Assembly (NCBI GenBank): GCA_017530365.1
Contig: JAFXMK010000011.1
Span: 186,001 to 250,000, forward strand
Source of the DNA: Bacteroidales bacterium
Lineage (GTDB): Bacteria; Bacteroidota; Bacteroidia; Bacteroidales; F082
Reading direction: 5' to 3'
DNA: 64,000 nucleotides
Made by a program: the position numbers and the translations under genes. The notes below the pieces were generated by a model, which saw only the letters and a list, made by a program, of their open reading frames with translations, was not told where the DNA came from and made no database searches. Every line of letters begins with the position of its first letter. Within the stretch, counting starts at the first letter, position 1. Shown here piece after piece: positions 1,151 through 62,094 of the stretch.

Positions 1151-2896
1151 TTATTCAGTTGCACATACATACATGAGACATTTCTTGCAGTCGAATTCCA
1201 AACGGAAGATGTTTTCGCCATTGCGGATGTATAACGGACCGACGGGCTTACCTGTAATTTTTGGGCAAAGGCCGTTGGCATAGCGGATACAGTGGTGGCA
1301 AGTCATTAAAGGTGAGGGGTGAGAGGTGAGAGGTGAGAGGTTTTCTTGAGCAGACTTCTCAACTCTCACCTCTAACCTCTCACCTTTAACCACTATCTTC
1401 CCAACCAGTCCCCGTTTCAGTTCTCCTAAGACTGATGCTGGAATCAGATAGGGCTGAGATAGCTGAATGTCAATATTGACTGGGTTATAGATGGTGTCGC
1501 CCCATTGGGAGAGTTTCTTTCGGATGTTTTCGGTGGCCTTTTCTGGGTTGTTTGCCACTATCATTTCGAGGCCTTGGACAGAAGCAACCCAACTTGCCTT
1601 GTTCTGGATTGCTGTCAACTTATACCCATCTTCCAAGTCGGTCAACACCAAATCGATGTCGATCTTGCGGTTGCCCGTGGAAGCCTCCACTTGGCGTTGC
1701 CATTCGATGTCGTAGTTGCGATATATCTTAGAGCCCCTTGTGGCGCCATGGGGACGATTGCACGAAACCTTATTTCCATGAACCACGTCTGCTCTGATTC
1801 CTATTAGCTCGTCATTCTTATCCAAGAAACACAGTCCGTCGCCATTATGTAGCGTTTTGTCGGTCAAAATCTCCATCTGAACGGAGTTGCACCATTTGAC
1901 CTCGCCGATGTATTCTCCCATCGATTTGGGCGTGTTTGGCGAGCCGATATTAGGTTGGCGGCCATGGATGAAATAGTCGGTGAAACCGCGGTTGAACGAC
2001 TTCTCGGGATTGACTTCAAATGTATAGCTGCAATGACCAAGCGAAGCCTGTGCAAACTCGGGACGCCTCTCAAAGATGGCATCCAGTTGCTGACGATAGT
2101 ATGCCGTGATGTTCTTCACATAATCCGCATCCTTCAGCCGACCCTCGATCTTGAAACTGGTAATACCCGCATCCAACAACTCTTCCAGGTGTGCGCTGTT
2201 GTTCAAGTCCTTCAAGCAAAGGAGGTGTTTGCCCTTGATTATTGTTTTCCAATTGTCCTTACTCCACACTCCTAACTCCTCACTCCTCCCTTCAAGCAAG
2301 TCCCACGGCAGCCGACAAGGTTGCGCACAGGCTCCACGATTGGCTGAGCGGTTGCCGATATATTGGCTCAGATAACACTGGCCGCTGTGACTGACGCATA
2401 GCGATCCATGAACAAAGAACTCCAACGGGACAGTGGTTTGTTGGCGAATTTCACGAATTTGCTCAATAGAGAGTTCCCTGCCGAGAACCACCTGTTTGAA
2501 GCCAAGTTGTTCAAGCTCTTTTACCCTTTCCACCGTTAGGTTGTCGCACTGCGTACTGGCATGAAGCGGGATGGGCGGCAGATCGAGATGCAGCAGGTTC
2601 AGGTCCTGCACAATGAGTGCATCCACGCCGGCATTCCAGCAGTCCCAAGCCAACTGACGGGCTGGTTCCAACTCGTTCTCGTAAAGCAGGGTGTTCAAGG
2701 TGACATATACCTTTGCATCGAACAAAGCTGCATGACGGCAAAGCTTCTCGATGTCCTCGATGCTGTTTCCCGCCTTCTCACGGGCACCAAAGGCAGGTCC
2801 ACCGATATACACGGCATCGGCTCCATGGTTAATGGCTGCCAAGCCAACTTCAAGGTTCTTGGCAGGTGAAAGAAGTTCGATCGAAGTCATTTTCAT
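1151..2896 (-). CDS. U32 family peptidase-like protein (RlhA/YhbU type)
   Basis: 581 residues. The N-terminal part has the U32 barrel signature (ELLSPAKNLEVG, GADAVYIGG, VHGSLCVSHSGQCYLS) with the cysteine cluster around GACAQPCRLPWDL. The C-terminal tail carries two more cysteine pairs (CHHCIRYANGLCP and CKKCLMYVC). Family members act in tRNA or rRNA hydroxylation and probably bind an Fe-S cluster; true protease activity is doubtful. Two heptamer arrays lie in frame. One near residue 205 gives EELGVWS; a larger inverted pair near residues 505-530 gives RLEVRVEKS and LSPLTSHPSPL just before the last cysteines. The -7 element at 2902-2909 lies only 5 nt before this ATG, so translation may be leaderless or may use the second ATG at 2890. 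Confidence 0.88.
   Translation of the reverse strand: MKMTSIELLSPAKNLEVGLAAINHGADAVYIGGPAFGAREKAGNSIEDIEKLCRHAALFDAKVYVTLNTLLYENELEPARQLAWDCWNAGVDALIVQDLNLLHLDLPPIPLHASTQCDNLTVERVKELEQLGFKQVVLGRELSIEQIREIRQQTTVPLEFFVHGSLCVSHSGQCYLSQYIGNRSANRGACAQPCRLPWDLLEGRSEELGVWSKDNWKTIIKGKHLLCLKDLNNSAHLEELLDAGITSFKIEGRLKDADYVKNITAYYRQQLDAIFERRPEFAQASLGHCSYTFEVNPEKSFNRGFTDYFIHGRQPNIGSPNTPKSMGEYIGEVKWCNSVQMEILTDKTLHNGDGLCFLDKNDELIGIRADVVHGNKVSCNRPHGATRGSKIYRNYDIEWQRQVEASTGNRKIDIDLVLTDLEDGYKLTAIQNKASWVASVQGLEMIVANNPEKATENIRKKLSQWGDTIYNPVNIDIQLSQPYLIPASVLGELKRGLVGKIVVKGERLEVRVEKSAQENLSPLTSHPSPLMTCHHCIRYANGLCPKITGKPVGPLYIRNGENIFRLEFDCKKCLMYVCATE
1307..1389. repeat. Heptamer array, inverted pair, inside the U32 gene
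   Basis: On the + strand the left arm reads as successive GGTGAGA units (1311-1340). The right arm (1357-1389) reads as the complement, CTCTCAC and CTCTAAC units. About 18 nt separate the arms, so the RNA can fold into a long hairpin. The array is in frame and encodes about 28 residues that look inserted before the C-terminal cysteines. Confidence 0.8.
2261..2290. repeat. Heptamer array inside the U32 gene
   Basis: Four units on the + strand: ACTCCAC, ACTCCTA, ACTCCTC, ACTCCTC. The sense strand is purine-rich and encodes SEELGVWS. Same unit type as the right arm of the array in the YfcC gene. Confidence 0.75.
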
Positions 2897-2901
2897 GAAT
2901 G

Positions 2902-7737: not shown

Positions 7738-10132
7738 GAATGCCAACAAGCTGCAAACTGAAGTTGGAAATCAAAAATTCGATACGGTCACCGTTGACAA
7801 AATAACACATTACCTTGTCACCATCCGCAAAATGAACCTGTGACTTGTTAAGCGACTGGGTCATCGTAAAATGATGCCATTGGTCATAATACTCAAACCA
7901 ATCGTAATTGACCATCAAGGTCTTGAAGGCCTCACGGTTGCCATCAGGGTGTTCCAAGGCATAACCCAAGGAGATCTTCTTACCCCCATTATCCTGATGA
8001 GGAATGTAAATGTCAAAGTTGCAATAAACGACGACCGACTCCAGACTATCATATACTGGTTCCATGAACAAATTGAACGGATACTCCGTGTTCAACTTGA
8101 AGACATTGGATTCGTTCAACGTATCGAACGGGGTCGCTTGGGTGTGCAGGAGGACATAGTTGACCGATTGCGTGCTGTCAACCGACAACAACAGACGTTG
8201 CTTGTTTTCATCAAGCATTATCAAGGCGTCGTTGTTCATCACATAATCGTCCATGGCCTTGTAGTCGCTCATCAACTTGACAATTTGCTCCTCCTCCACG
8301 GGCGTTATGGTCAGACGATCGTTTTCATAACCAAATTTGTAGATTTTCCCCTCATCGTAGAAATAGTCCTTATAGATCATGTTGTCCATCTTGCGCGAGT
8401 TCTTCAGCTGCGGCGTGAAAGTGTTGGCACGGAAGGACGGCGACACGTCAAGACCGGTATTGATCCAACTGACGATGTTGGGAGATTTTACACCATAGTT
8501 TTCCTTCAACATGGCCAGAAATGAAGGTGTGATGTCGCGATGCGCCACCATAGCCGGAAAACGATGCGGTTCCTTGAGCATGGGCGACCAGATGATTAGC
8601 GGCACATGGTATTTGTCAAGCTCTTCCGACTGGGCATTGAAGCAATGGTCGCCAGTGATGACAAAGATGGTGTTCTCGTATTCCGGCATGTTTCGGTAAT
8701 CCGAGAAAAACTTCCGCAAGCAATCGTCGTAATACAAGTAAGAAGCATACATCTCGTACTGCGAAGGCTGTATGTCGTCCAACCTATGATAGTGTTTCAG
8801 TTTGTCAATATATGTTTGGGTATATCGTTCTTTGTCTGGATACTCAAAAGGATCGTGTGTGGTCAAGGTCAGGTAGATATCAAGATAAGGTGAGAGGTGA
8901 GAGGTGAGAGGTGTGAGGTTTCTTTTTTCCTTTAAGGATTCAGAAAACAGGTATTCGTCATAGAGACCCCAAGTGTTTTGCATCTCTGCCGGGTAAGCGC
9001 TATGGTCGGGCAGATAGCCTTCCACGCCCAAGTCATTCAAGAAGTAGCACATGTCGTCGAAACAAGTCCAGCCGCCATAGAAAAACGACGGATAGTAGCC
9101 GCTTTCTTTCAAGAGGCTGACCAGAGAGTAGAAACGCGGACAGTTGGACGACTGCATGAAGCCGCGTTTGCCAAAAGGCAGGCTTCCAAACAAGGAAGGG
9201 AGTACCGCGATGGTGCGTTGTGACGACGACATGCAGTTGAGCCAGCACAGGCTCTGATCGGCCAAGGAGTCCAAGAAAGGTGTAGCGGAAGGATACTTGC
9301 AGTTGTAGCCGCTGAATTCGCGACTCAAGCCCTCTGTGATGACAAACACCAGATTGGGCTTCTTGTCAGGATTCAGGTTGAAATACGACGACAAAACATC
9401 GGGCGATTGGTCCACATGGGCGAAAGGATAGCGGTAATCCACAAAATTGTCCTCAGGAAACATGGACTGGAATTCCAGGATGCGTCCCCGCTGTGCTTCC
9501 AAGTCTTTCGGGTTGAAACGGTTAAACAAAGCTTCTTTATCGAACAGGCTGCGCCAGAAGAATTCCTGTTTGTTGCATACCACGCCGTTAGCAGGTATCT
9601 TCCAGAAAAACAATGCGGCAACCGCCAAAGCCAACCACAAAAACAAGCCCCATCGCCCCACCTTAACTTCTCTTCTTGAAACAATCAAAAACAAGATTGG
9701 AATCCCCAGCAGACACACATAGCTCCACCACACAAATGAACCCGTTGATTGGGAGATATAGATCAACTCCTTGACAGAGTAGTCGAAGAAAAGCTTGTCG
9801 AGCGGGATGTAAGCCGAGATGAAATACATGATCATCGCGTTGGAGATCAGCAGCATCAGGGCGCCGATAATACGAAAGATCCATCGGGCGGCCTTTGACG
9901 ACCAACGATGAAGCAACAAATACAAAGGACAAAGCACCAATGCAAACTTGCTGAAAACCAAAATGTCGTAGCCATAGCCCAACAAACACTGGCAGAAGTG
10001 TTTCCCAACTTCTTGATGGTAATAGCCCAAAACAATGGCTTCGAACAACCTAACGGCCAAACCGAACACCAGCATCCAGAAAAGGAAACTCAGAAATCCT
10101 TTTATACCGTTTGATATTTTCTCTTTATTCAT
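7730..10132 (-). CDS. LTA synthase-like sulfatase-superfamily membrane protein (second paralog)
   Basis: 800 residues. Architecture as in the downstream paralog: membrane segments to about residue 190, PNLVFVITEGLS near 260, SSSQRTIAVLPSLFG near 302, LTTHDPF near 420, TGDHCFNA near 494. It has an extra C-terminal region of about 180 residues (from about 620), predicted beta-rich, that the paralog lacks. A heptamer array near residue 409 encodes LTPLTSHLSP directly before LDIYLTLTTHDPF; the paralog reads DEQRPHADIFLTLTTHEPF there without it, so the array looks inserted into a surface loop. First gene of a two-gene operon with its own divergent promoter. Confidence 0.85.
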   Translation of the reverse strand: MNKEKISNGIKGFLSFLFWMLVFGLAVRLFEAIVLGYYHQEVGKHFCQCLLGYGYDILVFSKFALVLCPLYLLLHRWSSKAARWIFRIIGALMLLISNAMIMYFISAYIPLDKLFFDYSVKELIYISQSTGSFVWWSYVCLLGIPILFLIVSRREVKVGRWGLFLWLALAVAALFFWKIPANGVVCNKQEFFWRSLFDKEALFNRFNPKDLEAQRGRILEFQSMFPEDNFVDYRYPFAHVDQSPDVLSSYFNLNPDKKPNLVFVITEGLSREFSGYNCKYPSATPFLDSLADQSLCWLNCMSSSQRTIAVLPSLFGSLPFGKRGFMQSSNCPRFYSLVSLLKESGYYPSFFYGGWTCFDDMCYFLNDLGVEGYLPDHSAYPAEMQNTWGLYDEYLFSESLKEKRNLTPLTSHLSPYLDIYLTLTTHDPFEYPDKERYTQTYIDKLKHYHRLDDIQPSQYEMYASYLYYDDCLRKFFSDYRNMPEYENTIFVITGDHCFNAQSEELDKYHVPLIIWSPMLKEPHRFPAMVAHRDITPSFLAMLKENYGVKSPNIVSWINTGLDVSPSFRANTFTPQLKNSRKMDNMIYKDYFYDEGKIYKFGYENDRLTITPVEEEQIVKLMSDYKAMDDYVMNNDALIMLDENKQRLLLSVDSTQSVNYVLLHTQATPFDTLNESNVFKLNTEYPFNLFMEPVYDSLESVVVYCNFDIYIPHQDNGGKKISLGYALEHPDGNREAFKTLMVNYDWFEYYDQWHHFTMTQSLNKSQVHFADGDKVMCYFVNGDRIEFLISNFSLQLVGIHE
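8884..8922. repeat. Heptamer array inside the LtaS-like gene
   Basis: The + strand shows GATAAGG then repeated GTGAGAG units and a GTGTGAG variant, all in 7-nt phase. It is antisense to the gene and encodes the loop TPLTSHLSP, which is absent from the neighbouring paralog. Confidence 0.82.
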
Positions 10133-10160: not shown

Positions 10161-10162
10161 AT

Positions 10163-13492: not shown

Positions 13493-15330
13493 TGTTTGAT
13501 TATTTTGGTGACATATTGATCCAGCTTTAACACGTAAACACCTGAAGGTAATGGAAGATCAAGTGTGATCATGTTTTTGTTGATATTCAACATGACCGTT
13601 TTGTGATAGACCTCCTGTCCTAGCATATTGAAAACACGCAATTCAGATAGTTTAGCCTTATCCGCCACATATTCCAAATACAAATGGTCGTTGAAAGGGT
13701 TAGGGTAGCAACTACAAACCCTTGTGATGTCCATGACATCGAAGGTGTTCATAAAACGATTCAACTTTCCAAGAATTGTATCGTTCAACGACTGAAGCAG
13801 ACCATCAACATGATTTACATCCATTTCCCATTTTTCGAAACTGGATGGAAAGCCAAAACGACTCGATTGAGAAGGCACTTCTGGCTCTACAAGGGCGCAA
13901 ACGGCATGGAAGCATGGCGCTATCCGATCATATCGCAAGTGGTCAGACAACAGTTGATGAAACCGATTTTTGAATCGATCCCTAAACTCATGGTTGTCCA
14001 ATAGTTTCCTAAAAAACAGCGTGGCTTGAAATGACGACGGATTGTTTCCATGAGCCTCTGGATTGGTATCCATCGCATTGGAGAAGATATCCCAGTTGCG
14101 GAAAAAACAGCCGTCACCGTCAAAGAAGATCCATCGCCACTGACCATTACCATGCTGCCAACAGCGAACATTGTTCTTGGGCCAGTCCACATTGGTGGAA
14201 TAGAGTTCAAAAATCTGATAATCGATGAAGTTGTCCACATCGATTCTTTCGCTTAAGAACCGATAGTTTTCTAGTAATGACAGATCGGCATCCAACACCC
14301 ACTGGAAGAGTTCGTTCCATTGGGAATCATCACCTTGATCCAAGAAGATCCACTGCTTGATAATGTTGAAGTCTTCTGGGGCAAACCCGAAATGGTCTTC
14401 CAAATAATGTTGATCAGGTGATTCCTCCAAGGCATAAATTCCCCAATATTCTCCATTCAAGAAAAGTACGGCTTGTCTAGAGGCCAGGCTTTCCAAGTTA
14501 AGATCGCGTGCCACTTGCTGTGCCAGATGGTCTTGTACGCCCGTTGTCATCCAATTACTGCATCGGAACGGTTTCAGACTTAAATGTTTATAGCTGTCAA
14601 TGGGAGCATTTTCAGGAAAGAAGAGGTGTTTGAACCGTTTTTTGCCATATTCTTCTCTGGCAAAAACCTTAAAACCCTTTTGTTGAAAACGCCTTGAGGC
14701 TCCACCGTGTGTACGCAATCCAGCCACCTGATTAATGCCACTGTTATCGGTCTCATAAAACTCAATGTTGCAAACCCTTTCCCATTCTGGTCCTTTGCAG
14801 AAATAATTCCCAGTCCAATCGAGCAAGTTGGGGCTTTGATAACACCCTGGGACCATGATTCCATGATAATAGTTGAAGAGGCCTGTGGAATCAGAACATA
14901 GTGAGATCACAGGCAATCCGTGGGTATCACAGTTCAGTGAATGGATGAAATAACTGTTAGTTGCCACCTCGCTGATACAGTTTTCGTCCTCATCGAACAC
15001 GGCAGCACGTATCACGATGCAGTGTTGGATACTATCGGGATAAAACATCTGCCCTTCAGGAGCCACCTGAATGGTATAAATATCGGAGGTGGAATAAAGA
15101 CTTTCGTCCAACAGCAACGGTCCAGTGTAAAGTCTAGACTGTGCTGTTGGACGATTGCCATTAGTGGTGAAACGGATGTGATGTTGCTGATAGAAAGGGA
15201 AGATTTCGAGAACGGGCGAAGTCTCGTAAAAGCCTCCTGACACCGAGAAACAAGCCTTCTCGGCGGGTTGACTTATACCGAAAAACGGCATAAGAAGGAG
15301 GGCTGTTATCAGCAATAATCTATCTTTCAA
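13489..15330 (-). CDS. CotH kinase-family protein with T9SS sorting domain
   Basis: 613 residues from a TTG start (15328-15330) lying within a heptamer array; the next ATG (codon 14) would cut the signal peptide. Order: signal peptide; a chitobiase C-terminal-like domain (FTTNGNRPTAQSRLYTGP); CotH kinase domain from about residue 190 (LRTHGGASRRFQQKGFK, FLNGEYWGIYALEE, IFFDGDG); and a C-terminal T9SS sorting domain (CYPNPFNDHLYLEY, VFNMLGQEVY, SGVYVLKLD). It should be exported to the cell surface. CotH kinases are protein kinases in spore coats, but bacterial surface versions have unknown targets. Confidence 0.87.
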   Translation of the reverse strand: MKDRLLLITALLLMPFFGISQPAEKACFSVSGGFYETSPVLEIFPFYQQHHIRFTTNGNRPTAQSRLYTGPLLLDESLYSTSDIYTIQVAPEGQMFYPDSIQHCIVIRAAVFDEDENCISEVATNSYFIHSLNCDTHGLPVISLCSDSTGLFNYYHGIMVPGCYQSPNLLDWTGNYFCKGPEWERVCNIEFYETDNSGINQVAGLRTHGGASRRFQQKGFKVFAREEYGKKRFKHLFFPENAPIDSYKHLSLKPFRCSNWMTTGVQDHLAQQVARDLNLESLASRQAVLFLNGEYWGIYALEESPDQHYLEDHFGFAPEDFNIIKQWIFLDQGDDSQWNELFQWVLDADLSLLENYRFLSERIDVDNFIDYQIFELYSTNVDWPKNNVRCWQHGNGQWRWIFFDGDGCFFRNWDIFSNAMDTNPEAHGNNPSSFQATLFFRKLLDNHEFRDRFKNRFHQLLSDHLRYDRIAPCFHAVCALVEPEVPSQSSRFGFPSSFEKWEMDVNHVDGLLQSLNDTILGKLNRFMNTFDVMDITRVCSCYPNPFNDHLYLEYVADKAKLSELRVFNMLGQEVYHKTVMLNINKNMITLDLPLPSGVYVLKLDQYVTKIIKQ

Positions 15331-15362
15331 TTTCCGTTTCCCACTTTCAGAGTTCAGTTCTC
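15324..15362. repeat. Heptamer array at the S46-CotH gene junction
   Basis: On the minus strand, directly after the S46 stop codon, come AGAACTG, AACTCTG, AAAGTGG, GAAACGG and AAATTGA in exact 7-nt steps. The last unit contains the TTG start of the CotH gene. Confidence 0.68.
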
Positions 15363-17576: not shown

Positions 17577-17601
17577 TTAAAGATTTAATAATTGTTGATT
17601 T

Positions 17602-17633
17602 AACTTTTATCTTTTATCTCTTATCTTTTATCT
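17602..17633. repeat. Heptamer array at the M49-S46 gene junction
   Basis: CTTTTAT, CTTTTAT, CTCTTAT, CTTTTAT on the + strand. These 32 nt are identical to 24592-24623, 7 kb away. On the minus strand the array supplies the TAA stop of the M49-like gene (17628-17630). Confidence 0.87.
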
Positions 17634-19262
17634 TAACAACACTTCCGGTCCCATGTTGTAATAAATGTCCACTGGGATGCCGGCTTGGTTCACGCGGTCG
17701 AGATCAGCTTGCAGTTCCGGCTTGATGACGGTCATCTCACCCATCCAAGCTTTGGCAGCTTCATAGTCGCCATTGCCTTGGCAAACGAGGATGTCGCCAG
17801 CGAGTTTCTCCACGGCTACCTTCATCTTCTCGAAGTCGATGGCGTATTGGCCCTGTTCATTGCGGGTGAAGGCGCCTTCTTTCTCGAAATAGTTGAACTC
17901 AAGCATGTTGGCCTTGCCGTGGGCGCTAGCGGCGCCGAAACGCACGGAGCGGAAGATGCCAGCGAGGAAGGTGGTGTAGTTGTCCTCCATGGTGGTGTTG
18001 GTATATTCACCCATCTCGGCAAGTTTGGTCACGAGGAACAGGCCCAGCACATCGGCTTTGGCCTCTTCGATGGCATTGTATTGGTTGCCTAGGGCGCTAT
18101 GGACGGAGCCATTGCCTGTGATGGTGTTCTTGATGCCCATGCCGTGAGCGGTTTCGTGGAACATCACGTTGGCGAAGAAAGCATCGAACTTGATATGGTC
18201 TTGCGATTCGGGCGTCATTAGGGTTGAGGCGATGGGGACGAGGATGTTCTCGAACTTGGCCTGCATGGCGTTTTTCAGTTGGAGCTTGCGGGTACCGCGT
18301 TGGAGTTGCACGCGCTCATCGTTGGGCAGGTTGATAGCGATGGTTTTACTGTTGGCATTGCAGTCGCCAGCGTAATAGACGGCATCGTAAGCGGCGAGAT
18401 CGACATCCGATCCGGGCACTTCTTTCTTGTATTCTTCCGGCACGGGAAGTTGCTTCTGAAGTTCAGGAACGAACTGGGCATAGCGGGCCAGTTGCTTGGT
18501 CCACTCCTGATCCTTGATGAGGATGAAAGCCTCATGGGAAGCCTTGATGCCATAGCGAGCATCGGTGTAGTTCTCGATGGGTCCGATCACCATGTCGATG
18601 TTGTTGTTGCGGACATCCATCCAGCGCATGTCGCTTTCCAGATAATCGTCCGTACGGAGGGCTTTGGCGCGGAGTCTCAGGTACTCGGCGAATTCTTCAT
18701 CGCCGGCCAGCTCGGAGGCGTCATCCAACAGGGAGGCAGCCTTCTTGATCTGTTCTTCGAAATAGTCGTGATACCACACACATTTCAGGGCGCCGTTTTC
18801 GTCACGGACGATCATGGTGTATTGGCTGGTCTTGTTCGGATCGTCGAAGGCGTTCCATTCTTCTTCCGTCATATCCTGAGGATAGAACTGGGCGCCGGCA
18901 GGTTTTTCACCGATGCCTTCCACGAAGGATTTGTTGCCGTCGAGGCCGTCCCAAGGACCGTAAGTGATGCAGGCAAACTTCTGCAGGTCGGGGTCGCTGA
19001 TCTTGGCCATCAGCTCTTCCTTGTCACCGTAATTCTCTTTCCAGAAAAGGTCTTCCATGATGTCGGCTGCTTCGAAAAGCAGGGGCAGCATTTCCTTTTC
19101 ATTTTCGCTCAGATGGCTGATATCCGTGGTCAAGGTATATTCGGCATATTTGTCGATCAACTTGGGTTGTGGTTTTTCCACGGGTTGTTGCTTGGGAGCG
19201 TTGGTGCAGGCCGATGCCACCAGGGCTGCTGCAACGACAATAGTCAAAGTTTTGATTTTCAT
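17628..19262 (-). CDS. M49-like zinc dipeptidyl-peptidase, lipoprotein
   Basis: 544 residues. The signal peptide ends in the lipobox LVASAC. The zinc site is HETAHG near residue 369, with the downstream ligand motif EEAKAD near 401, both typical of M49 (DPP III). Classical DPP III has HExxGH, one residue longer; this protein has HExxH followed by GMG, like the shorter-motif branch known from plant NUDIX-linked members. The enzyme probably cuts dipeptides from oligopeptides in the periplasm or at the outer membrane. It is the first gene of the operon leading into the S46 peptidase, with its own promoter at 19302-19309. The last codon and stop (AGA TAA) come from the heptamer array. Confidence 0.82.
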   Translation of the reverse strand: MKIKTLTIVVAAALVASACTNAPKQQPVEKPQPKLIDKYAEYTLTTDISHLSENEKEMLPLLFEAADIMEDLFWKENYGDKEELMAKISDPDLQKFACITYGPWDGLDGNKSFVEGIGEKPAGAQFYPQDMTEEEWNAFDDPNKTSQYTMIVRDENGALKCVWYHDYFEEQIKKAASLLDDASELAGDEEFAEYLRLRAKALRTDDYLESDMRWMDVRNNNIDMVIGPIENYTDARYGIKASHEAFILIKDQEWTKQLARYAQFVPELQKQLPVPEEYKKEVPGSDVDLAAYDAVYYAGDCNANSKTIAINLPNDERVQLQRGTRKLQLKNAMQAKFENILVPIASTLMTPESQDHIKFDAFFANVMFHETAHGMGIKNTITGNGSVHSALGNQYNAIEEAKADVLGLFLVTKLAEMGEYTNTTMEDNYTTFLAGIFRSVRFGAASAHGKANMLEFNYFEKEGAFTRNEQGQYAIDFEKMKVAVEKLAGDILVCQGNGDYEAAKAWMGEMTVIKPELQADLDRVNQAGIPVDIYYNMGPEVLLR

Positions 19263-24564: not shown

Positions 24565-24591
24565 CTACCGAGCTTTGAGCCCTTCGGGCTA

Positions 24592-24627
24592 AACTTTTAT
24601 CTTTTATCTCTTATCTTTTATCTCTTC
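24592..24627. repeat. Heptamer array at the dut-TPR junction
   Basis: CTTTTAT/CTCTTAT units. The first 32 nt are identical to 17602-17633. On the minus strand the array forms the last codon and TAA stop of dut (24618-24620), the same arrangement as in the M49-like gene. Confidence 0.87.
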
Positions 24628-44615: not shown

Positions 44616-45109
44616 AATACGCAAATTACGATATTGTATTTCAAGAAGTTCCTGACGAGGTGACCTTGGCCATCAACATCAGCAATTGTCCAAACCAGTG
44701 TGTGGGCTGTCACAGCAAATACCTCTGGGAGGATAGGGGAGAGACCCTCGACAAGGAATCGCTTGACAAACTGGTGGATCAATACCGCACTGGCATCACC
44801 TGTGTGTGTTTCATGGGTGGCGACGCTGATCCTTACGACGTGGCCAACCTCGCCATGCATGTCAAAAACAAATACAAAGACATGAAAACCGCTTGGTATT
44901 CCGGCAAAAATGAGCTGCCTGATGCTTTCCACGCAGAGACTTTCGACTATATTAAAACCGGTCGCTACGATGAAAAGTACGGCCCCTTGAACTCCCTTAC
45001 TACCAACCAGCGCATGATCAAGCGATTGGCTGACGGACGAATTAAGGACATCACTAGCAGGTTTCAGAAGCAAGAAGCAAGAAAACAGGAGACCGATGTC
45101 AGTATATAA
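44609..45109 (+). CDS. nrdG: Anaerobic RNR-activating radical-SAM protein
   Basis: 166 residues. Radical-SAM cluster motif CPNQCVGC (the CxxxCxxC form, residues about 28-35), followed by FMGGDADP, the usual GGE-like motif. It generates the glycyl radical on NrdD. The last 15 residues (FQKQEARKQETDVSI) are encoded by a heptamer array and look like an added tail. Confidence 0.92.
   Translation: MLKYANYDIVFQEVPDEVTLAINISNCPNQCVGCHSKYLWEDRGETLDKESLDKLVDQYRTGITCVCFMGGDADPYDVANLAMHVKNKYKDMKTAWYSGKNELPDAFHAETFDYIKTGRYDEKYGPLNSLTTNQRMIKRLADGRIKDITSRFQKQEARKQETDVSI
45064..45100. repeat. Heptamer array at the nrdG 3' end
   Basis: AGAAGCA twice, AGAAAAC, AGGAGAC in 7-nt steps, encoding the charged tail QKQEARKQET. 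Confidence 0.65.
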
Positions 45110-54557: not shown

Positions 54558-54570
54558 CCGCGAATTTTAA

Positions 54571-54693
54571 GGCCGATGGCTTATGGCTAATGGCCGATGG
54601 CAGCTACCAACGTTGAGGAGATTGCGGATCAAGTCCGCAATGACGCCTTGGAATAGAGCTGCCATAGGCCATAGGCTATCGGCCATAAGCCAA
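54571..54693. repeat. Composite inverted-repeat element in the argF leader
   Basis: The left arm (54571-54606) has GGCCGAT, GGCTTAT, GGCTAAT and GGCCGAT units. The right arm (54657-54693) is its inverted copy with one unit more. Between them lies a second palindrome, ATTGCGGA-TCAAG-TCCGCAAT (54621-54641), of the widespread GTCATTGCGGAxTTGATCCGCAAT-like type. The ends are symmetrical, as in a MITE-like element; no target-site duplication was established. Confidence 0.8.
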
Positions 54694-54732
54694 TCTTTGA
54701 ATATTTAATCTTAAATCTTTAAATCATAAATT

Positions 54733-55734
54733 ATGGCATTTAACCTCAGAAACAGAAACTTCCTGAAGTTGTTGGACTTCACTCCGGAAGAGATTAAGTT
54801 CTTACTGAAACTTGCTGCCGACCTGAAGGCCGCCAAGTATGCAGGCACCGAACAACCCAAACTGACGGGCAAGAACATTGCCCTCATCTTCGAAAAGACC
54901 TCGACCCGCACCCGCTGCGCCTTCGAGGTTGGCGCCAAGGACCAAGGTGCTCATGTCACCTATCTCGGCCCCACTGGCTCACAAATCGGCATCAAGGAAT
55001 CGATGGCTGACACCGCCCGCGTGCTGGGTCGTATGTTCGACGGCATCGAGTACCGTGGCTTCGACCAGGCCACAGTCGAGGAACTGGCCAAATATGCCGG
55101 CGTCCCCGTGTGGAACGGTCTTACCGCCGAAGCTCACCCCACTCAGATTCTGGCCGACTTCCTCACCATCCAGGAGCATACCGACAAGCCCCTCAACCAG
55201 GTGAAGTTCGCTTATATCGGCGATGCCCGTTACAATATGGGCAACAGCCTGATGGTCGGTGGTGTGAAGATGGGTATGGATATCCGCATTATCGCCCCCA
55301 AGAAACTGCAGCCTGCCAAAGATCTTGTCAAGAAGTGCCAGGAAATCGCCAAGGAAACCGGCGCCAAGCTTACCGTCACCGACGACGTGGAGAAGGGCGT
55401 GAAGGGTCTTGACTTCATCTACACCGACATCTGGGTATCGATGGGCGAGCCCGACAGCGTGTGGAAAGAGCGTATCAATATGCTGATGCCCTATCAGGTT
55501 AACGCAGAACTGATGAAAAAGACAGGAAACCCCAAGTGCAAGTTTATGCACTGCCTTCCTTCGTATCACAATCTGGAGACCAAGGCCGGCCGCGACGTTT
55601 ATGAGAAGTTCGGCTTGAACGGTATCGAGGTCACCGAGGACGTATTCGAAAGCGAGAACAGCATCGTCTTCGACGAAGCCGAGAACCGTATGCACACCAT
55701 CAAGGCTGTGATGGTTGCCACATTGGGCGACTAA
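54733..55734 (+). CDS. argF: Ornithine carbamoyltransferase
   Basis: 333 residues. Carbamoyl-phosphate site [13 protein letters not shown] near 58, [11 protein letters not shown] near 136, and the ornithine-side motif MHCLPSYH near 275 are all present; the last is often HCLPAFH. It condenses carbamoyl phosphate with ornithine to citrulline, or runs in reverse in arginine breakdown. The leader before the ATG has 7-nt phased AT-rich units (CTTAAAT, CTTTAAA, TCATAAA). Confidence 0.95.
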
Positions 55735-56780: not shown

Positions 56781-58004
56781 TTAAAGAATTACAACTTTTT
56801 CAGTGCTAACACTGCCATCACGATGTGTCACCCGAACAAAATAAATCCCTGAAACCAAAGCACCAACATCAATCATACATTCATCTTGATCAGCATAAGA
56901 CTGGAGTAGGATCCTTTGACCTAAAAAATTATAAACCTCAAGCTGCTGGATGGATTCCCCCTTTACGGTAAGCGTTTCCGAAACAGGATTAGGATAGACT
57001 ATCAGATGTTCCGAATCAACTTCTTCAACTGAAGTGTCAATGAGTCCAGCAAGTGTGGCTACCAATCCCAGATTGAGTTCCGTAAAACGTTTTGCTTGGT
57101 CCATATTATTGACACTTACGCCTAAAATGTCATTGGGAGTATGGATGAAAGGCGAACTGTCATGAACATCCTCAAAAGTATGGACTGCGGCATATCCGCT
57201 ACGGTTAAACGAAGAATAATCACTGTCACCCCAAGTAAGCCAATTCTGACGAATGGGCATGTCGGGATAATAGATTTCACTGAAATTGAAAACGTAATTG
57301 GCAATGAGGGAATCGCGGGTAGTGTACATAAGATGCACATGTATGTCGGAGCCTTCCTTAAGGTAACCTATCATGTCGAGGTTGAAATAGCCCACAATAT
57401 CCACCAGTCGTTCTGCGCAATCTTTGGCGTAGGCCTCACTACCTTTCAAACCGATTTCTTCTGCAGCCCAATTGCAATACATGATGGATCTCTCAAACTT
57501 GCATTTACTGAGTAGCCTTGTCATTTCCAGAACACCAGCCACACCCGATGCGTTGTCGTCAGCTCCAGGAGCCCGAAGAGAATCGGGATGACCTGGACTG
57601 AGGTTATAGGAATCATAATGTGCTCCGCAAACCACATATTCATCAGGATAAACAAGTCCTTTTTGAACAGCAATGACATTGTCGGAAGTCTCATACAGGC
57701 TGTCATGATACGACACCACAAAATCATGTAGCGACACCGAGTCTATGCCCAAATCACGATAAGTCTCACAAAGCCAATCCTGAACCTCATAGACCATGCG
57801 GCTATCCCAACGACGGGTATGATACGACTGCAAATGATCTATAGTTGCAGTTAGGCTGTCAACCGATACCTGATTGATCAAATTGCGTATCCTTGCGTCT
57901 TCCTGTTCAATTACAGGATAGGTATGCTCAAACAAGTGAGTCACCTGTGCTTTTGCATTCAGCACCACGAACCCAATAACGAATAAAAAAACGACTCTTC
58001 TCAT
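56781..58004 (-). CDS. M28 family aminopeptidase-like protein with T9SS sorting domain
   Basis: 407 residues: signal peptide ending NAKAQ, M28 catalytic domain with the zinc ligands in GAHYDSYN near 132, PGADDNASGVAGVLEM near 150, and NWAAEEIGLKGSEAYA near 180, then a C-terminal T9SS domain (VYPNPVSETLTVKG, GIYFVRVTHRDG). A secreted zinc aminopeptidase at the cell surface is likely. The ATG directly follows a heptamer array after tsaB. Confidence 0.9.
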   Translation of the reverse strand: MRRVVFLFVIGFVVLNAKAQVTHLFEHTYPVIEQEDARIRNLINQVSVDSLTATIDHLQSYHTRRWDSRMVYEVQDWLCETYRDLGIDSVSLHDFVVSYHDSLYETSDNVIAVQKGLVYPDEYVVCGAHYDSYNLSPGHPDSLRAPGADDNASGVAGVLEMTRLLSKCKFERSIMYCNWAAEEIGLKGSEAYAKDCAERLVDIVGYFNLDMIGYLKEGSDIHVHLMYTTRDSLIANYVFNFSEIYYPDMPIRQNWLTWGDSDYSSFNRSGYAAVHTFEDVHDSSPFIHTPNDILGVSVNNMDQAKRFTELNLGLVATLAGLIDTSVEEVDSEHLIVYPNPVSETLTVKGESIQQLEVYNFLGQRILLQSYADQDECMIDVGALVSGIYFVRVTHRDGSVSTEKVVIL

Positions 58005-58035
58005 TTTTCAATTTTCAATTTTCAACTTTCAGCTC
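58005..58035. repeat. Heptamer array at the tsaB-M28 junction
   Basis: Minus strand: AGCTGAA, AGTTGAA, AATTGAA, AATTGAA, then AAATG with the M28 start. It fills the whole gap and provides the A-rich leader of the M28 gene. Confidence 0.82.
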
Positions 58036-58036
58036 C

Positions 58037-58744
58037 CTACAATCCTTTCACATGCGGCTTGCCTGCCACAAAATCTTTCAGATAAAACGGCTCAAAATAA
58101 GCTACATCCACGAAATCGCCAGCCTTTAAAGCCTTGTCGGCCAAAGGAGCCATGAAAGCGGCAGAGGGTTCGAAATCATCCACGATATGGATTTGTGGGT
58201 GCTCCTTGAAGAGTTCGTGCAGCTTAGGTGCCCCGTCGCCGAATAGCCAAACACGTGAAGGTAAAAGGTGAGAGATAAGAGACGAAAGGTAAATATCATC
58301 GTCAAACACCACCGCCTCTGTATCTTGGATTCGGTTCAGTTGCGCATCGAAAACGGCGCAATATACTTCCATGCGACGGGCGTCGATCATGGGAATGAAC
58401 AAATCGGTCGACTGGACATCGTCACCCAAACGCTGGTGCATGCCGTAAGCCATGGCATGCAAAGTGTCAACCGCCATCAAAGGCAGACCTGCAGCATAAC
58501 AAACCCCTTTGGCGGTACTGACACCAATGCGCAAACCTGTGTAAGAACCCGGACCTTGGCTCACCGCCACGGCATCCAGCTGAGGATAACTGACGCCTGT
58601 TTCATCCATCACTTCCTTGATGAAAGTAGTGATTTTCTCGGAATGAGCATTTTGACCTTTACACTCTCGTAACGCCAGATTTTGGATCCCATCGTTCAAC
58701 GCTACCGAACACGTGGGGGTCGCTGTTTCAAGACACAATATCAT
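58037..58744 (-). CDS. tsaB: tRNA threonylcarbamoyladenosine biosynthesis protein TsaB
   Basis: 235 residues from the ATG at 58742-58744 (MILCLETATPTCSVALN); a longer upstream frame covers the promoter region and is rejected. Signature VSQGPGSYTGLRIGVSTAKG near 70. It pairs with TsaD in t6A synthesis on ANN-decoding tRNAs. A heptamer array encodes SSLISHLLPS near residue 156, inside the C-terminal lobe. Confidence 0.93.
   Translation of the reverse strand: MILCLETATPTCSVALNDGIQNLALRECKGQNAHSEKITTFIKEVMDETGVSYPQLDAVAVSQGPGSYTGLRIGVSTAKGVCYAAGLPLMAVDTLHAMAYGMHQRLGDDVQSTDLFIPMIDARRMEVYCAVFDAQLNRIQDTEAVVFDDDIYLSSLISHLLPSRVWLFGDGAPKLHELFKEHPQIHIVDDFEPSAAFMAPLADKALKAGDFVDVAYFEPFYLKDFVAGKPHVKGL
58259..58293. 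repeat. Heptamer array inside tsaB
   Basis: + strand: GGTAAAA, GGTGAGA, GATAAGA, GACGAAA, GGTAAAT in exact 7-nt steps. In frame and antisense, encoding LSSLISHLLPS. Confidence 0.78.
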
Positions 58745-58814: not shown

Positions 58815-59840
58815 ATGAGAATTTTAGTCACTGGAGGTACTGGATACATTGGTTCACATACGCTTGTAGAGCTTTATGCCGCTGGCCATGAGACCGTTGT
58901 GGTTGATAATTTATCCAACTCCAATCCGGTTGCTTTGGAAAGAGTAGAAGCTCTTGTCGGAAAAAAGATTCCGTTTTATCAACTGGATATCCGGGATCGC
59001 GAGAGCCTTGACCGGATGATGGAGCAAAACCATTTCGATGCCTGCATCCATTTCGCAGGCTTGAAAGCAGTGGGAGAGTCCGTGGAAAAGCCTTGGGAAT
59101 ATTACGAAAACAACATTGGAGGCACGCTCACGCTTCTCGATGTGATGCGTCGTCATGGCTGTAAAAACATCATCTTCTCTTCATCAGCCACGGTGTATGG
59201 TGATCCGGCGATGATACCAATCACGGAAGCTTGTCCAAAAGGTGAATGCACCAATCCCTACGGCAAAACCAAAAGCATGCTGGAGGAAATCATGATGGAC
59301 ATGCAAAAAGCCGACAAGGAATGGAACGTCGTCCTGCTTCGCTATTTCAACCCTATCGGCGCCCATCCAAGCGGAACCATCGGGGAGAATCCCAACGGCA
59401 TCCCAAACAACCTGATGCCTTACGTCACGCAGGTGGCTGTTGGTAAACGCCCAGAACTAGGTGTCTTTGGCAACGATTATGACACACCTGACGGCACAGG
59501 GGTCCGCGACTATATTCATGTGGTGGACCTAGCCAAAGGACATGTGGCCGCCTTGCAAGCCATCGAGAGAAAATGCGGTTGTGCTATCTATAACCTGGGA
59601 ACGGGTCAAGGATATTCCGTACTTCAACTGGTAAAAACGTTTGAAAAAGTCAACGACATCAAAATCCCATATAGCATCAAACCTCGTCGCGCAGGCGATA
59701 TAGCCACCTGCTACTCCGATCCCGCCAAAGCGGAAAAAGAACTCGGCTGGAAAGCAGAACGTGGACTGGAGGACATGTGCCGTGACTCATGGAACTGGCA
59801 ACGGAATAACCCGGAAGGGTATGGGGGAGTTGAAAGTTAA
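58815..59840 (+). CDS. galE: UDP-glucose 4-epimerase
   Basis: 341 residues. NAD-binding TGGTGYIGSHT at residues 6-16, SSSATVYG near 122, catalytic YxxxK as NPYGKTKSM near 148, and the tail motif YSDPAKAEKELGW. It interconverts UDP-Glc and UDP-Gal (or the N-acetyl forms). The last residues VES and the stop come from a heptamer array that continues to the next ATG. Confidence 0.94.
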   Translation: MRILVTGGTGYIGSHTLVELYAAGHETVVVDNLSNSNPVALERVEALVGKKIPFYQLDIRDRESLDRMMEQNHFDACIHFAGLKAVGESVEKPWEYYENNIGGTLTLLDVMRRHGCKNIIFSSSATVYGDPAMIPITEACPKGECTNPYGKTKSMLEEIMMDMQKADKEWNVVLLRYFNPIGAHPSGTIGENPNGIPNNLMPYVTQVAVGKRPELGVFGNDYDTPDGTGVRDYIHVVDLAKGHVAALQAIERKCGCAIYNLGTGQGYSVLQLVKTFEKVNDIKIPYSIKPRRAGDIATCYSDPAKAEKELGWKAERGLEDMCRDSWNWQRNNPEGYGGVES

Positions 59841-59856
59841 AAGTTGAAAGTTTAAC
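59828..59856. repeat. Heptamer array at the galE-DUF4954 junction
   Basis: AGTTGAA, AGTTAAA, AGTTGAA, AGTTTAA. The second unit holds the galE stop (TAA, 59838-59840) and the array ends 2 nt before the next ATG (59858). Confidence 0.85.
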
Positions 59857-59857
59857 T

Positions 59858-62065
59858 ATGGATAAAGTAACACTATTACCTTACGACAGGATTTACAAAA
59901 ATTTCATCGACGAGAAGTACCTCCACGATGGACATGATGAGTATTACTATCGTAACCAACAAGTCAAGAAACCTACCAACGGTTGGCGTCATCTTCATTC
60001 CGAAGAGATCGAGCGTTTGGTAAAGAACAGCAACACCTCGACCAACTGGGACGAGATCTGGGTCACTGACGATTTCGACACCAATATGATACGCAACAAC
60101 CATTTCTTTGGGATGTGCCGTATCGGAAGGGTGGCTAACGAGATCCTCCAATACCACGACCTGCGTGTTCCTGTTGGCATCACCGATAGCAGCATCATTT
60201 CTTGCGACATCGGCGATAACGTAGCCATCCACGACGTACATTACATGGCCAACTACATCATCGGCGACAAATGTATCCTATTCAACATCCAAGAAATCTC
60301 TACCACTGACCACTCCAAGTTTGGAAACGGTGTCATCAAAGAAGGAGAACCTGAAGATGTTAGGGTTTGGCTCGAAGTGATGAACGAGAATGGCGGCCGC
60401 AAGATCCTGCCTTTCGACGGTATGATCACCGCCGATGCCTATCTTTGGGCTAAGTATATCGACGACAAACCGCTCCAGCAAAGGTTGTTCGACATTACCA
60501 ACAATGCGTTTGACTCGCACCGTGGCTATTACGGAACCGTTGGCGAGTCGTCCGTGATCAAAAACTGCTGGATCCTGAAAGACGCCAAAATCGGTCCTTT
60601 CTGCTACATTAAAGGAGCCAGCAAACTCAAGAACATCACCATCAACTCTTCTGAAGAAGAGCCTTCACAAGTCGGCGAAGGTGTCATCTTGGTAAACGGC
60701 ATCACGGGGTACGGATGCCATATCTTCTATTCCGTGGTGGCAGTGAGATTTGTGTTGGGCGACAACTGTAACCTGAAGTATGGCGCCCGACTGATCTATT
60801 CCGTGTTGGGCGACAACTCCACCATCTCCTGCTGCGAGGTGCTCAACAACCTGATCTTCCCATCACACGAACAGCACCACAACAACTCATTCCTGATCTC
60901 TGCCTGTGTGATGGGACAGAGCAACATGGCGGCAGGTGCCACCTTGGGATCCAACCACAACAGTCGCGCTACCGACGGAGAGATCGTCGCCAGCCGTGGC
61001 TTCTGGCCAGGTCTTTGCTCCAGCATCAAGCATTCTTCCAAGTTTGCATCGTTTACCCTGCTTTCGAAGGCCGACTACCCCAACGAGATGAACATCATGC
61101 TCCCGTTCTGCCTGGTCAACAACAACGCCAAAACCAACGAGCTGGAGATCATGCCTGCCTACTGGTGGATGTACAATATGTTCGCCATCGCGCGCAACAC
61201 CTCGAAATACCAGAAACGCGATGTCCGCAAGCGCAAGATCCAAAATATCGAATTCGAGACCTTTGCGCCTGATACCATGGAGGAAACCATAGAGGCTCGC
61301 AAACTGCTTGAAGTCTGGGTGGCCAAAGCCTATCTCCGCTCCCAAGGAGAGAATCCCGACACGCACGAATACTACGATCTCAGGACCGTTGGCAAAAACT
61401 TACTCGATCATGAACCTGAAGTGTGCAAAAAGCTCGAAGTGTTTGGTGAAAACATCGAGAAGAGCAAACGCTGCACCCGTATCCTGAAAGCCTACGAAGC
61501 TTATCATGCCTACGGCGACATGCTGGTGTATTACGCCGTGAAGAATATCGTGCACTACCTGGAAAACCATGAGGAAGCCAGCATCGAGAACCTCAGCCGT
61601 ATGATGAAAGGCAAACGGCTTCGCAAATGGATCAACCTCGGCGGACAAACCATGCCCGAGGAAGATGTTGACCAGCTGCGCGATGATATCAAAAACGAGG
61701 TGCTCAACAGCTGGGAAGAAATCCATCACCGCTATAACGAACTTTGGGACCACTACAAGATGGAGAAACTCCGTCACGCCTATTTCTCACTGATGTTCCT
61801 CTACAAGGACGAGACCGACGTACTTACCCATGAGATGTGGGAAGAATGCCTAGACAAAGCAGTCCGTATCCAGCAGTACATCTGTGACCAAGTGTATGAA
61901 TCCCGGAAAAAAGACTACGAAAACCCCATCCGAAGCGCCACCTTCCGTAACGAAGAAGAGAAAATCGCCGTGGTGGGCCGAATCGAAGATGTCTCTTTCG
62001 TCAAACAAATCAAAAAAGAAACAGAGGAATTCATTGCCTCTATTAACAAAATCCGTAATTCTTAA
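59858..62065 (+). CDS. DUF4954 family left-handed beta-helix protein
   Basis: 735 residues. A hexapeptide-like beta-helix region lies from about 105 to 370 (ITDSSIISCDIGDNVAIHDV, AKIGPFCYIKGASKLKNITI, VLGDNSTISCCEVLNNLIFP in pieces). The C-terminal half is mostly helical (about 430-735). DUF4954 proteins resemble sugar-phosphate nucleotidyl- or acyltransferases but lack an assigned reaction. Placed between galE and nagB, an amino-sugar or nucleotide-sugar role is likely. The last codons and stop lie in a heptamer array. Confidence 0.82.
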   Translation: MDKVTLLPYDRIYKNFIDEKYLHDGHDEYYYRNQQVKKPTNGWRHLHSEEIERLVKNSNTSTNWDEIWVTDDFDTNMIRNNHFFGMCRIGRVANEILQYHDLRVPVGITDSSIISCDIGDNVAIHDVHYMANYIIGDKCILFNIQEISTTDHSKFGNGVIKEGEPEDVRVWLEVMNENGGRKILPFDGMITADAYLWAKYIDDKPLQQRLFDITNNAFDSHRGYYGTVGESSVIKNCWILKDAKIGPFCYIKGASKLKNITINSSEEEPSQVGEGVILVNGITGYGCHIFYSVVAVRFVLGDNCNLKYGARLIYSVLGDNSTISCCEVLNNLIFPSHEQHHNNSFLISACVMGQSNMAAGATLGSNHNSRATDGEIVASRGFWPGLCSSIKHSSKFASFTLLSKADYPNEMNIMLPFCLVNNNAKTNELEIMPAYWWMYNMFAIARNTSKYQKRDVRKRKIQNIEFETFAPDTMEETIEARKLLEVWVAKAYLRSQGENPDTHEYYDLRTVGKNLLDHEPEVCKKLEVFGENIEKSKRCTRILKAYEAYHAYGDMLVYYAVKNIVHYLENHEEASIENLSRMMKGKRLRKWINLGGQTMPEEDVDQLRDDIKNEVLNSWEEIHHRYNELWDHYKMEKLRHAYFSLMFLYKDETDVLTHEMWEECLDKAVRIQQYICDQVYESRKKDYENPIRSATFRNEEEKIAVVGRIEDVSFVKQIKKETEEFIASINKIRNS

Positions 62066-62094
62066 TTCTAACTTTGAATTCTAAATTCTAAAAA
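62056..62094. repeat. Heptamer array at the DUF4954-nagB junction
   Basis: AATTCTT, AATTCTA, ACTTTG, AATTCTA, AATTCTA (one unit is 6 nt). It holds the stop TAA of the upstream gene (62063-62065) and ends 2 nt before the nagB ATG (62097). Confidence 0.8.

What the first reader, a model, noticed from the sequence alone, without database searches (positions are those of the whole stretch)
1307..62094. A dispersed family of degenerate 7-nt repeat arrays, at about 15 loci in 64 kb
Seen directly: arrays with strict 7-nt phase at 1307-1389, 2261-2290, 8884-8922, 15324-15362, 17602-17633, 20098-20180, 22724-22755, 24592-24627, 41494-41521, 45064-45100, 54571-54693, 58005-58035, 58259-58293, 59828-59856 and 62056-62094. 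In purine-rich orientation the units are GGTGAGA, AGTGAGG, AGTTGAA, AGTGGAA, AAAGATA and AATTGAA. Neighbouring units in one array share bases, while arrays differ, so each locus looks locally amplified rather than copied whole, except the two AAAGATA arrays that share 32 identical nt. Cyanobacterial STRR heptanucleotide repeats are the closest known analogue; I know of no named family in Bacteroidota. Mechanism and function are unknown; slippage, or insertion followed by amplification, is inference.
Basis: partly seen in the sequence, partly recalled or inferred. Interest (0 to 1): 0.88.

Follow-up and report, generated by a model that had tools for sequence, protein, structure and literature searches.

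The report
Mobile-looking seven-letter hairpin DNA repeats
A group of rumen gut bacteria carries many short DNA stretches built from about four copies of a purine-rich seven-letter unit, often as facing pairs that form hairpins, and these look like small copied elements that settle at gene ends and even inside protein genes.

Summary
Strict period-7 arrays exceed chance in the window (11 versus 0.0 in 20 shuffles), with at most 1 at any other period, and recur in the genome and in related rumen Bacteroidales.

Arrays fall into sequence families amplified species by species. In the AGTKAGG family 17 of 22 arms end GGAGT|A and length varies by whole heptads. Two arrays face empty, heptad-free sites in relatives. 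Neighbouring arrays form purine-to-pyrimidine pairs: 39, against 0 of opposite polarity. About 40% lie inside ORFs (crude calls). In operons they lie on the upstream stop codon, mostly purine-sense and unpaired.

Best explanation: non-autonomous, REPIN-like hairpin elements copied by an unknown enzyme, altered by heptad slippage, then filtered by selection on reading frame and operon structure. Against it: no enzyme found, no clear target duplication, and another family shows no single fixed end. Closest kinds: GGGAATC heptads of Xanthomonas/Nostoc, TAACTGA repeats, REPINs, Rickettsia palindromic elements; none is met fully.

The parts
1304..1347 (+). purine arm (GGTGAGA family) of a heptad hairpin inside the U32 peptidase gene 1151-2896(-)
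1351..1397 (-). pyrimidine arm of the same hairpin; with 1304-1347 read in frame as KIVVKGERLEVRVEKSAQENLSPLTSHPSPLM, residues 500-531
   Evidence: (RNA fold -57.9 kcal/mol, z -9.1)
2253..2297 (-). solo array (AGTKAGG family) in frame in the same U32 gene (residues 200-215); array at this site in G034 and G008, none in G020, G023, G010 and G031
8882..8929 (+). solo array (GGTGAGA family), in frame in the sulfatase gene 7730-10132(-), residues 402-417 (LTPLTSHLSP)
15324..15362 (-). decayed array in an operon spacer; orthologous sites in five relatives hold period-7 arrays, mostly of other heptads
17591..17638 (-). solo AGATAAA-family array, purine-sense, containing the stop codon of the M49 peptidase gene 17628-19262(-)
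20099..20128 (+). purine arm (AGTCAGA-like) of a mixed-family pair, in frame in the DcuC-family transporter gene 19346-20983(+)
20142..20184 (-). pyrimidine arm (AGTKAGG family) of the same pair; the pair does not fold better than shuffles (z +0.6)
22720..22757 (-). array in frame in the DUF4292 gene 22371-22895(-) (MSGELKVESGEFP); same place, other heptads in G008 and G023
24587..24633 (-). solo AGATAAA-family array sharing 32 identical nt with 17591, purine-sense, containing the stop codon of the dUTPase gene 24618-25055(-)
45065..45095 (+). short weak array (AGAAGCA); longer at the orthologous site of G034
54567..54606 (+). left arm (GGCTTAT-like heptads) of a long inverted pair upstream of the carbamoyltransferase gene 54733-55734
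   Evidence: (whole 54567-54693 folds at -68.9 kcal/mol, z -7.6)
54656..54693 (-). right arm of the same inverted pair
54695..54734 (+). weak AT-rich array (AATCTTA) directly after the pair
57993..58040 (-). solo GAAAATT-family array filling an operon spacer, purine-sense
58258..58285 (+). weak array in frame in the TsaD-like (PF00814) gene 58037-58849(-); stronger GGTGAGA array at the orthologous site of G020
59823..59860 (+). solo GAAAGTT-family array containing the stop codon of the NAD-dependent epimerase gene 58815-59840; nine AGATAAA-like heptads at the same site in G023
62047..62097 (+). degenerate AATTCTA array in an operon spacer (looser threshold only)

Best explanation
The arrays are members of many small, non-autonomous dispersed repeat families. 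The basic piece is about 3-5 purine-rich heptads plus a few bases (about 24-40 nt, most often 31 nt in the best-defined family). It is found alone, or as a convergent doublet: purine arm, short loop, pyrimidine arm, about 70-110 nt, usually able to fold back as a hairpin. Shown: the families, their species-specific abundance, the purine-to-pyrimidine polarity of doublets, a fixed terminus in one family, arrays facing heptad-free sites in relatives, and copy-number change by whole heptads. Inferred: the pieces are copied through the genome in trans by an unidentified enzyme, perhaps acting on the single-stranded hairpin as proposed for REPINs, and solo arms are broken or partial doublets. After arrival, slippage changes the number of heptads. 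Selection then keeps what a site tolerates: inside genes, copies whose sense strand is open, as extra residues in linkers; in operons, unpaired purine-sense copies lying on the upstream stop codon, since the purine strand of many families carries stops in every frame; hairpins mostly inside genes and between convergent genes, where in one case one stands in place of a terminator-like hairpin.
For: Period 7 stands out in all six genomes of the clade (9.5-34.6 arrays per 100 kb, some G000 stretches chosen for hits). Family abundance as overlapping 21-nt exact matches in 60 genomes (a long array counts several times; G010's 25 GARAACG matches come from few places): GARAACG 145 in G008, 109 in G023, 40 in G020, 25 in G010, 4 in G034, 2 in G000, 0 in the other 54, reversed control 4 in G009 and 0 elsewhere; GARAGGT 216 in G010, 41 in G004, 32 in G020, 23 in G034, 8 in G000, 3 in G045, 0 in the other 54; AGTKAGG 111 in G034, 50 in G008, 48 in G000, 33 in G013, 7 in G020, 0-3 elsewhere, 0 in G023 and G010. 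Of 53 adjacent arms within 40 nt: 39 Pu-Py, 0 Py-Pu, 7 Pu-Pu, 7 Py-Py; arm units agree within 1 base in 28 of 39 against 33% for arms drawn from the same genome. Fixed end: 17 of 22 AGTKAGG arms end GGAGT, all 17 followed by A (three G034/G000 orthologous pairs are counted twice); orthologues L345/L349 and L337/L354 differ by one and two heptads. A 37-nt array in G023 where G000, G034 and G008 share one heptad-free sequence; an array of about 27 nt (by eye) in G008 against empty G000 and G034. Hairpins in 4 of 61 co-directional spacers against 9 of 20 convergent or divergent and 23 of 72 gene-internal loci; co-directional solo arrays 50 purine-sense to 6. Stop codon of a same-strand ORF inside 60 of 91 operon or 3'-end arrays, against 374 of 951 random placements in co-directional spacers. 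In 9 MBOAT proteins the tree groups by gene while linker heptads of G008 (3 copies) and G010 (3 copies) group by species.
Against: No mobilising gene was found. Y1 transposases occur in 47 of 60 relatives and reverse transcriptases in 34 of 60, by eye not tracking the arrays, and the two RAYT loci inspected are flanked by other repeats. No clear target-site duplication at the clean insertions. The GARAACG family shows no single fixed start or end in G008 and G023, so a bounded piece is shown for one family only. At the site of the 37-nt G023 insertion G010 has a different heptad hairpin, so loss of an ancestral array in the empty species is not excluded. Doublet arms are not closer to the family pattern than solo arms (29 vs 26 arms, 0.969 vs 0.960, p = 0.30), unlike REPINs. 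11 of 39 doublets have arms differing by 2 or more bases. Arrays often occupy the same site in several species with different heptads, which simple copying does not predict. Reversed-pattern controls are not empty for AGTKAGG (19 in G034, 8 in G008, 5 in G000) and GARAGGT (29 in G010), because the reversed units are themselves heptads of this kind. Many arrays have no readable orthologous site (42 of 67 for G000 to G034).
Confidence: 0.57

Rival explanations
1. Local replication slippage only. A 7-nt misalignment step, perhaps set by the polymerase footprint (the idea of Mrazek et al. 2007, not read, as cited in PMC4679880 and PMC4692102), amplifies resident purine-rich 7-mers wherever constraint is weak; pairing comes from template switching.
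For: Strict period 7; unit number differs by whole heptads between orthologues; variable, weakly constrained sites; no single fixed end in the GARAACG family.
Against: Many copies of one heptad in one species and none in its relatives; a fixed terminus at unlinked loci; two empty sites without a seed unit; 39:0 polarity.
Confidence: 0.17
2. Ectopic gene conversion (concerted evolution). Array sites are old; dispersed arrays within one genome overwrite each other, so the species' dominant heptad spreads over pre-existing sites.
For: Same site, different heptads between species at the U32 linker, the DcuC loop, DUF4292 and the 15324 and 24587 spacers; MBOAT linkers sort by species, not by gene, and one composite linker is shared between different paralogues; mixed-family pairs; G010 has another hairpin at the G023 insertion site.
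Against: G008 keeps an AGTKAGG array at the 2253 site although GAAAACG/GAGAACG make up 24 of its 32 arrays; heptad-free sites in relatives; arms share little sequence across families.
Confidence: 0.18
3. Selected regulatory motifs. Heptads bind an RNA- or DNA-binding protein at gene ends, as proposed for TAACTGA repeats (PMC4679880), and are kept by function.
For: Operon arrays are purine-sense 50:6, lie on the upstream stop (median -4 nt) and in 40 of 72 cases end within 20 nt of the next ATG; a hairpin stands where three relatives have a terminator-like hairpin.
Against: About 40% lie inside ORFs; heptads change between species at one site; orientation is also explained by stop codons in the purine strand. 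Expression was not tested.
Confidence: 0.08

Closest known systems
GGGAATC / GGGGA(C/T)T heptad repeats of Xanthomonas and Nostoc (Rehm et al. 2015, PMC4692102; section 10 and passages read)
   Same: Dispersed 7-nt tandem repeats, most often four units; 70 and 75 convergent inverted pairs in two xanthomonads; closer to the upstream gene; mostly between the same genes in two relatives with length and sequence variation.
   Different: One G-rich heptad there, 89-93% intergenic, G-quadruplex forming; here many purine-rich families, about 40% inside ORFs. Doublets of the Xanthomonas and Nostoc heptads were not found in the held sequence of the six genomes.
TAACTGA direct repeats of Beggiatoaceae, cyanobacteria and five Bacteroidetes (MacGregor 2015, PMC4679880; abstract, section 12 and passages read)
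   Same: Heptamer tandem repeats, mostly intergenic and in one orientation; some of its Bacteroidetes regions also hold other heptamer repeats.
   Different: Single heptamer, in its main genome mostly just upstream of start codons; here its doublet was found 3 times in held G034 sequence and 0 times in the other five genomes.
Cyanobacterial STRR heptanucleotide repeats
   Same: Dispersed heptanucleotide tandem repeats.
   Different: Original paper not read; sequences not compared here.
REPINs (Bertels and Rainey 2011, PMC3116915; passages read)
   Same: Short units found as singlets and as inverted doublets that form hairpins (93% inverted there); several families per genome.
   Different: Each REP is a palindrome and is linked to a RAYT gene; two solo heptad arrays tested do not fold and the two RAYT loci inspected carry other repeats.
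Rickettsia palindromic elements (Delihas review PMC2229807; passages read)
   Same: Hairpin elements found in frame in conserved protein genes.
   Different: 105-146 bp elements there; here tandem heptads of changing sequence.

Membership tests
Dispersed heptanucleotide repeats (STRR / GGGAATC / TAACTGA kind) | strict 7-nt tandem arrays, above chance, dispersed over the genome | tested here: met
Dispersed heptanucleotide repeats (STRR / GGGAATC / TAACTGA kind) | the named heptads themselves | tested here: not met
   GGGNATC and GGGGA(C/T)T doublets 0 in the window and in the held sequence of six genomes; TAACTGA doublet 0 in the window, 3 in G034, 0 in the other five
Dispersed heptanucleotide repeats (STRR / GGGAATC / TAACTGA kind) | predominantly intergenic | tested here: not met
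   88 of 207 arrays are internal to ORFs (crude ORF calls)
REPIN | inverted doublets of fixed polarity forming hairpins | tested here: met
   39 Pu-Py, 0 Py-Pu; 2 of 3 window pairs folded beat all shuffles, 1 does not
REPIN | each unit is itself a palindrome | tested here: not met
   two solo window arrays have no stable fold of their own (0 and -3.3 kcal/mol, neither better than shuffles)
REPIN | same units flank a RAYT gene | tested here: not met
   2 RAYT loci inspected, no heptad arrays in 450 nt each side; the other matches were not inspected
REPIN | doublets better conserved than singlets | tested here: not met
   29 paired vs 26 solo arms of one family in two genomes, p = 0.30
Rickettsia palindromic element / MITE | in-frame copies in conserved protein genes | tested here: met
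   U32, MBOAT, sulfatase, DcuC, DUF4292
Rickettsia palindromic element / MITE | target-site duplication | tested here: inconclusive
   no clear duplication at the clean insertions, at most 2 nt by eye
Rickettsia palindromic element / MITE | one fixed element sequence | tested here: not met
   many heptad families with a shared architecture

The most novel reading that the evidence does not exclude
There is an unrecognised class of mobile DNA whose identity is an architecture, not a sequence: about four purine-rich heptads, doubled convergently. An unknown enzyme writes or copies the heptads, for example by template-directed repeat synthesis of the purine strand followed by fold-back copying (which would give the 39:0 polarity), so that sequence changes between lineages while period, length and polarity persist, possibly from Bacteroidota to Xanthomonas and cyanobacteria.
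Probability: 0.1. Interest if true: 0.92.

Novelty: new variant of a known kind. Interest (0 to 1): 0.62.

Why it matters
Heptads are reported as the most abundant class of long simple repeats in most bacterial genomes rich in them (2007 survey as cited in PMC4679880), and the two heptad papers seen here leave their function and spread open. This lineage shows them in many parallel families and in several stages (doublets, solo arms, heptad-number variants, empty sites), often inside ORFs. It offers a natural system in which spread, slippage and conversion can be separated, and it shows how a repeat can add linker peptides and stop codons to ordinary genes.

Tried and rejected
RAYT/REP origin: two RAYT loci (L019, L267) are flanked by their own palindromes, not heptads. 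Reverse transcriptase link: RVT_1 was not found in G010, the densest genome, though that genome is 84% complete. Protein-level conservation as the cause: rejected for most sites because orthologues carry other bases; kept open for 41494. Known RNA families: two tRNAs only, at gathering thresholds. Doublets as the better conserved unit: not supported. Reversed patterns as negative controls: weak for two families, because the reverse of the unit is itself a rotation of the family or another heptad of this kind. Other periods: some period-8 and period-9 arrays exist in own and related contigs, not followed. Paper searches: peptides SPLTSHL, GERLEVR, FFILHSS, FILHSSF, NEELRIK, ERLEVRG gave 0 papers; heptanucleotide, heptamer or 7-bp repeats with Bacteroidetes or Flavobacteria gave one relevant paper; some searches returned further listings, of which only the papers cited were opened. 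PMC4666352 (intrastrand triplex repeats, passages read) has no mention of Bacteroid or heptamer and was set aside. Sampling limits: own-genome stretches L022-L028 were chosen for GGTGAGA hits and the 14 short G034 stretches for similarity to one hairpin, so the G000 density and the G034 row of the first end-length table are biased; searches are freer of this (one search used 20 windows picked from the pattern places listed, requiring 21 exact nt). A few fetched stretches read as N (G022, G050, G054). ORF calls are crude (longest ORF >= 90 aa).

Full report
What was checked. The window is part of a 2.67 Mb, 50-contig genome assembly of unnamed origin, 88% complete.

The arrays are real. A scan of self-match at lag p finds 11 strong arrays at period 7 in the window and none in 20 dinucleotide shuffles, with at most 1 at any other period from 4 to 30. 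In 13 other own-genome stretches (234 kb) there are 14, shuffles 0; p8 has 5, p9 and p21 have 4. The syntenic stretches of G034, G020, G008, G023 and G010 hold 17, 7, 26, 24 and 21 arrays at period 7 and at most 1 at any other period; the 17.7 kb held of G031 has 1. Elsewhere in the genus the density falls to 14 per 362 kb (p8 8, p9 6) and 24 per 538 kb (p9 6 next). In other families of the order period 7 no longer stands out: 3 per 261 kb, where p10 has 8, and 6 per 367 kb, where p11 and p12 have 5 each. So this is a lineage-specific expansion.

They belong to families. In the purine-rich strand 144 of 207 arrays have six or seven purines per heptad, against 15% of random 7-mers. Typical units are GAGAGGT, GAAAACG, GAGGAGT, GATAAAA, GAAAGTT and GAAAGTG. 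Exact 21-nt patterns, counted with overlaps in 60 genomes, show species-specific abundance: GARAACG 145 in G008 and 109 in G023 but 2 in the window's genome and 0 outside six genomes; GARAGGT 216 in G010 and 41 in G004; AGTKAGG 111 in G034, 48 in G000, 33 in G013 and 0 in G023 and G010. Outside this genus GGTGAGA in near-triplicate (20 nt) was found in 6 of the 394 other genomes of the phylum sample. The AGTKAGG element has a defined end: in 20 windows taken from the pattern list, 17 of 22 arms end at GGAGT and all 17 are followed by A. Arms starting at AGT mostly measure 24, 31 or 38 nt and arms starting two bases earlier mostly 26, 33 or 40, that is, whole-heptad steps, with a few in between. 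Orthologous copies in G034 and G000 differ by one (L345/L349) and two heptads (L337/L354). In the GARAACG family, by contrast, starts and ends fall in several phases. So one family shows both a bounded dispersed piece and slippage within it.

They pair in one polarity. Of 53 neighbouring arms within 40 nt in six genomes, 39 are purine then pyrimidine, none the reverse, 7 and 7 are same-sense (perhaps split arrays). Arm units match within one base in 28 of 39, against 33% for arms drawn from the same genome. The pair at 1304-1397 folds at -57.9 kcal/mol (z -9.1) and 54567-54693 at -68.9 (z -7.6), but the mixed-family pair at 20099-20184 does not fold better than shuffles. Purine-then-pyrimidine pairs were also seen by eye at 3 of 7 loci outside the genus that were found with the GGTGAGA and GARAGGT patterns (L330, L207, L208).

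Insertion. In G023 a 37-nt array lies where G000, G034 and G008 have the same uninterrupted, heptad-free sequence (G020 is also empty); in G008 an array of about 27 nt lies where G000 and G034 are empty. No clear target duplication is visible. G010 has a different heptad hairpin at the first site, so the site is used repeatedly or an older array was lost. In another case a G023 hairpin stands between convergent genes where G000, G034 and G020 have a terminator-like hairpin.

Same sites, other heptads. At the U32 peptidase linker, the DcuC-like transporter loop, the DUF4292 protein and several operon spacers, relatives also have period-7 arrays but often with other heptads. Between syntenic stretches the close pair largely agrees: G000 to G034 9 of 9 readable sites have an array within one base per unit (1 unreadable); G034 to G000 8 within one base, 1 different, 1 without array, 5 unreadable. 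G000 to G023 gives 6 arrays of different unit, 1 without array and 3 unreadable. In nine MBOAT proteins found by motif, the tree (438 columns, linker removed) groups by gene, while the linker heptads of three G008 copies are all of one family and those of three G010 copies all of another; the single G000 and G020 copies examined are empty. One G023 copy shares a composite linker with a different paralogue of G008, so conversion between paralogues probably also happens. Against universal overwriting, G008 keeps an AGTKAGG array at the 2253 site.

Where they sit. With crude ORF calls, 88 of 207 arrays are internal to ORFs, 57 between co-directional genes, 23 at 3' ends, 19 between convergent genes, 11 at 5' ends, 6 between divergent genes, 3 at edges. 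By locus (192 loci), hairpins make up 4 of 61 co-directional, 9 of 20 convergent or divergent and 23 of 72 internal loci; solo co-directional arrays are purine-sense 50 to 6. Co-directional arrays begin at the upstream stop (median -4 nt; 62 of 72 within 20 nt), and 40 of 72 end within 20 nt of the next ATG. In 60 of 91 operon or 3'-end arrays a same-strand stop codon lies inside the array, against 374 of 951 random placements (the two sets are not defined identically). 30 of 58 purine-sense operon arrays have no open frame in sense, whereas gene-internal arrays are open by definition and 22 of 51 pyrimidine-sense ones would be closed in the other orientation. Reading-frame selection therefore explains much of the orientation.

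Reading. The simplest account is a set of REPIN-like, non-autonomous hairpin elements made of heptads, copied by an unknown enzyme, altered by slippage and filtered by selection. The enzyme is missing: Y1 transposases and reverse transcriptases do not, by eye, track the arrays, and two RAYT genes carry other repeats. Prior art covers much of the pattern: Xanthomonas GGGAATC repeats also have mostly four units, convergent pairs and closeness to the upstream gene (PMC4692102, section 10 read), and TAACTGA repeats occur in five Bacteroidetes (PMC4679880). What seems new here is the number of parallel families, the absolute polarity, the in-frame copies inside many genes, and the heptad turnover at shared sites; the novelty claim rests on the paper searches only.

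Noticed in passing
L348 (loop of its hairpin); U32 genes of L039, L040 and other species: Other short sequences share the same protein linkers and even a heptad hairpin's loop (GTCATTGCGAGGAGCGGAGCAA); peptides such as SWIASAKGLAMT and RDARPCVST recur in U32 linkers of related species.
   Followed up: no
L019:17703-18047 and L267:6114-6458: RAYT-type transposase genes flanked by their own repeats, candidate REP families of this genus.
   Followed up: partly
L237:8347-8590 and 11201-11450: A ~245-nt inverted pair that matches many places in G034, G020, G008 and G023 on both strands.
   Followed up: no
L037 (own contig C11) and L236:1718-1763: Period-8 arrays of CAACTGAA-like units.
   Followed up: no
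G023 contig C4 59101-59163 (in L161): A heptad hairpin stands where three relatives have a terminator-like hairpin between convergent genes.
   Followed up: partly
window 41494-41521: Weak period-7 stretch in an RNase R gene, similar in three relatives; ordinary coding or an old fixed copy.
   Followed up: partly
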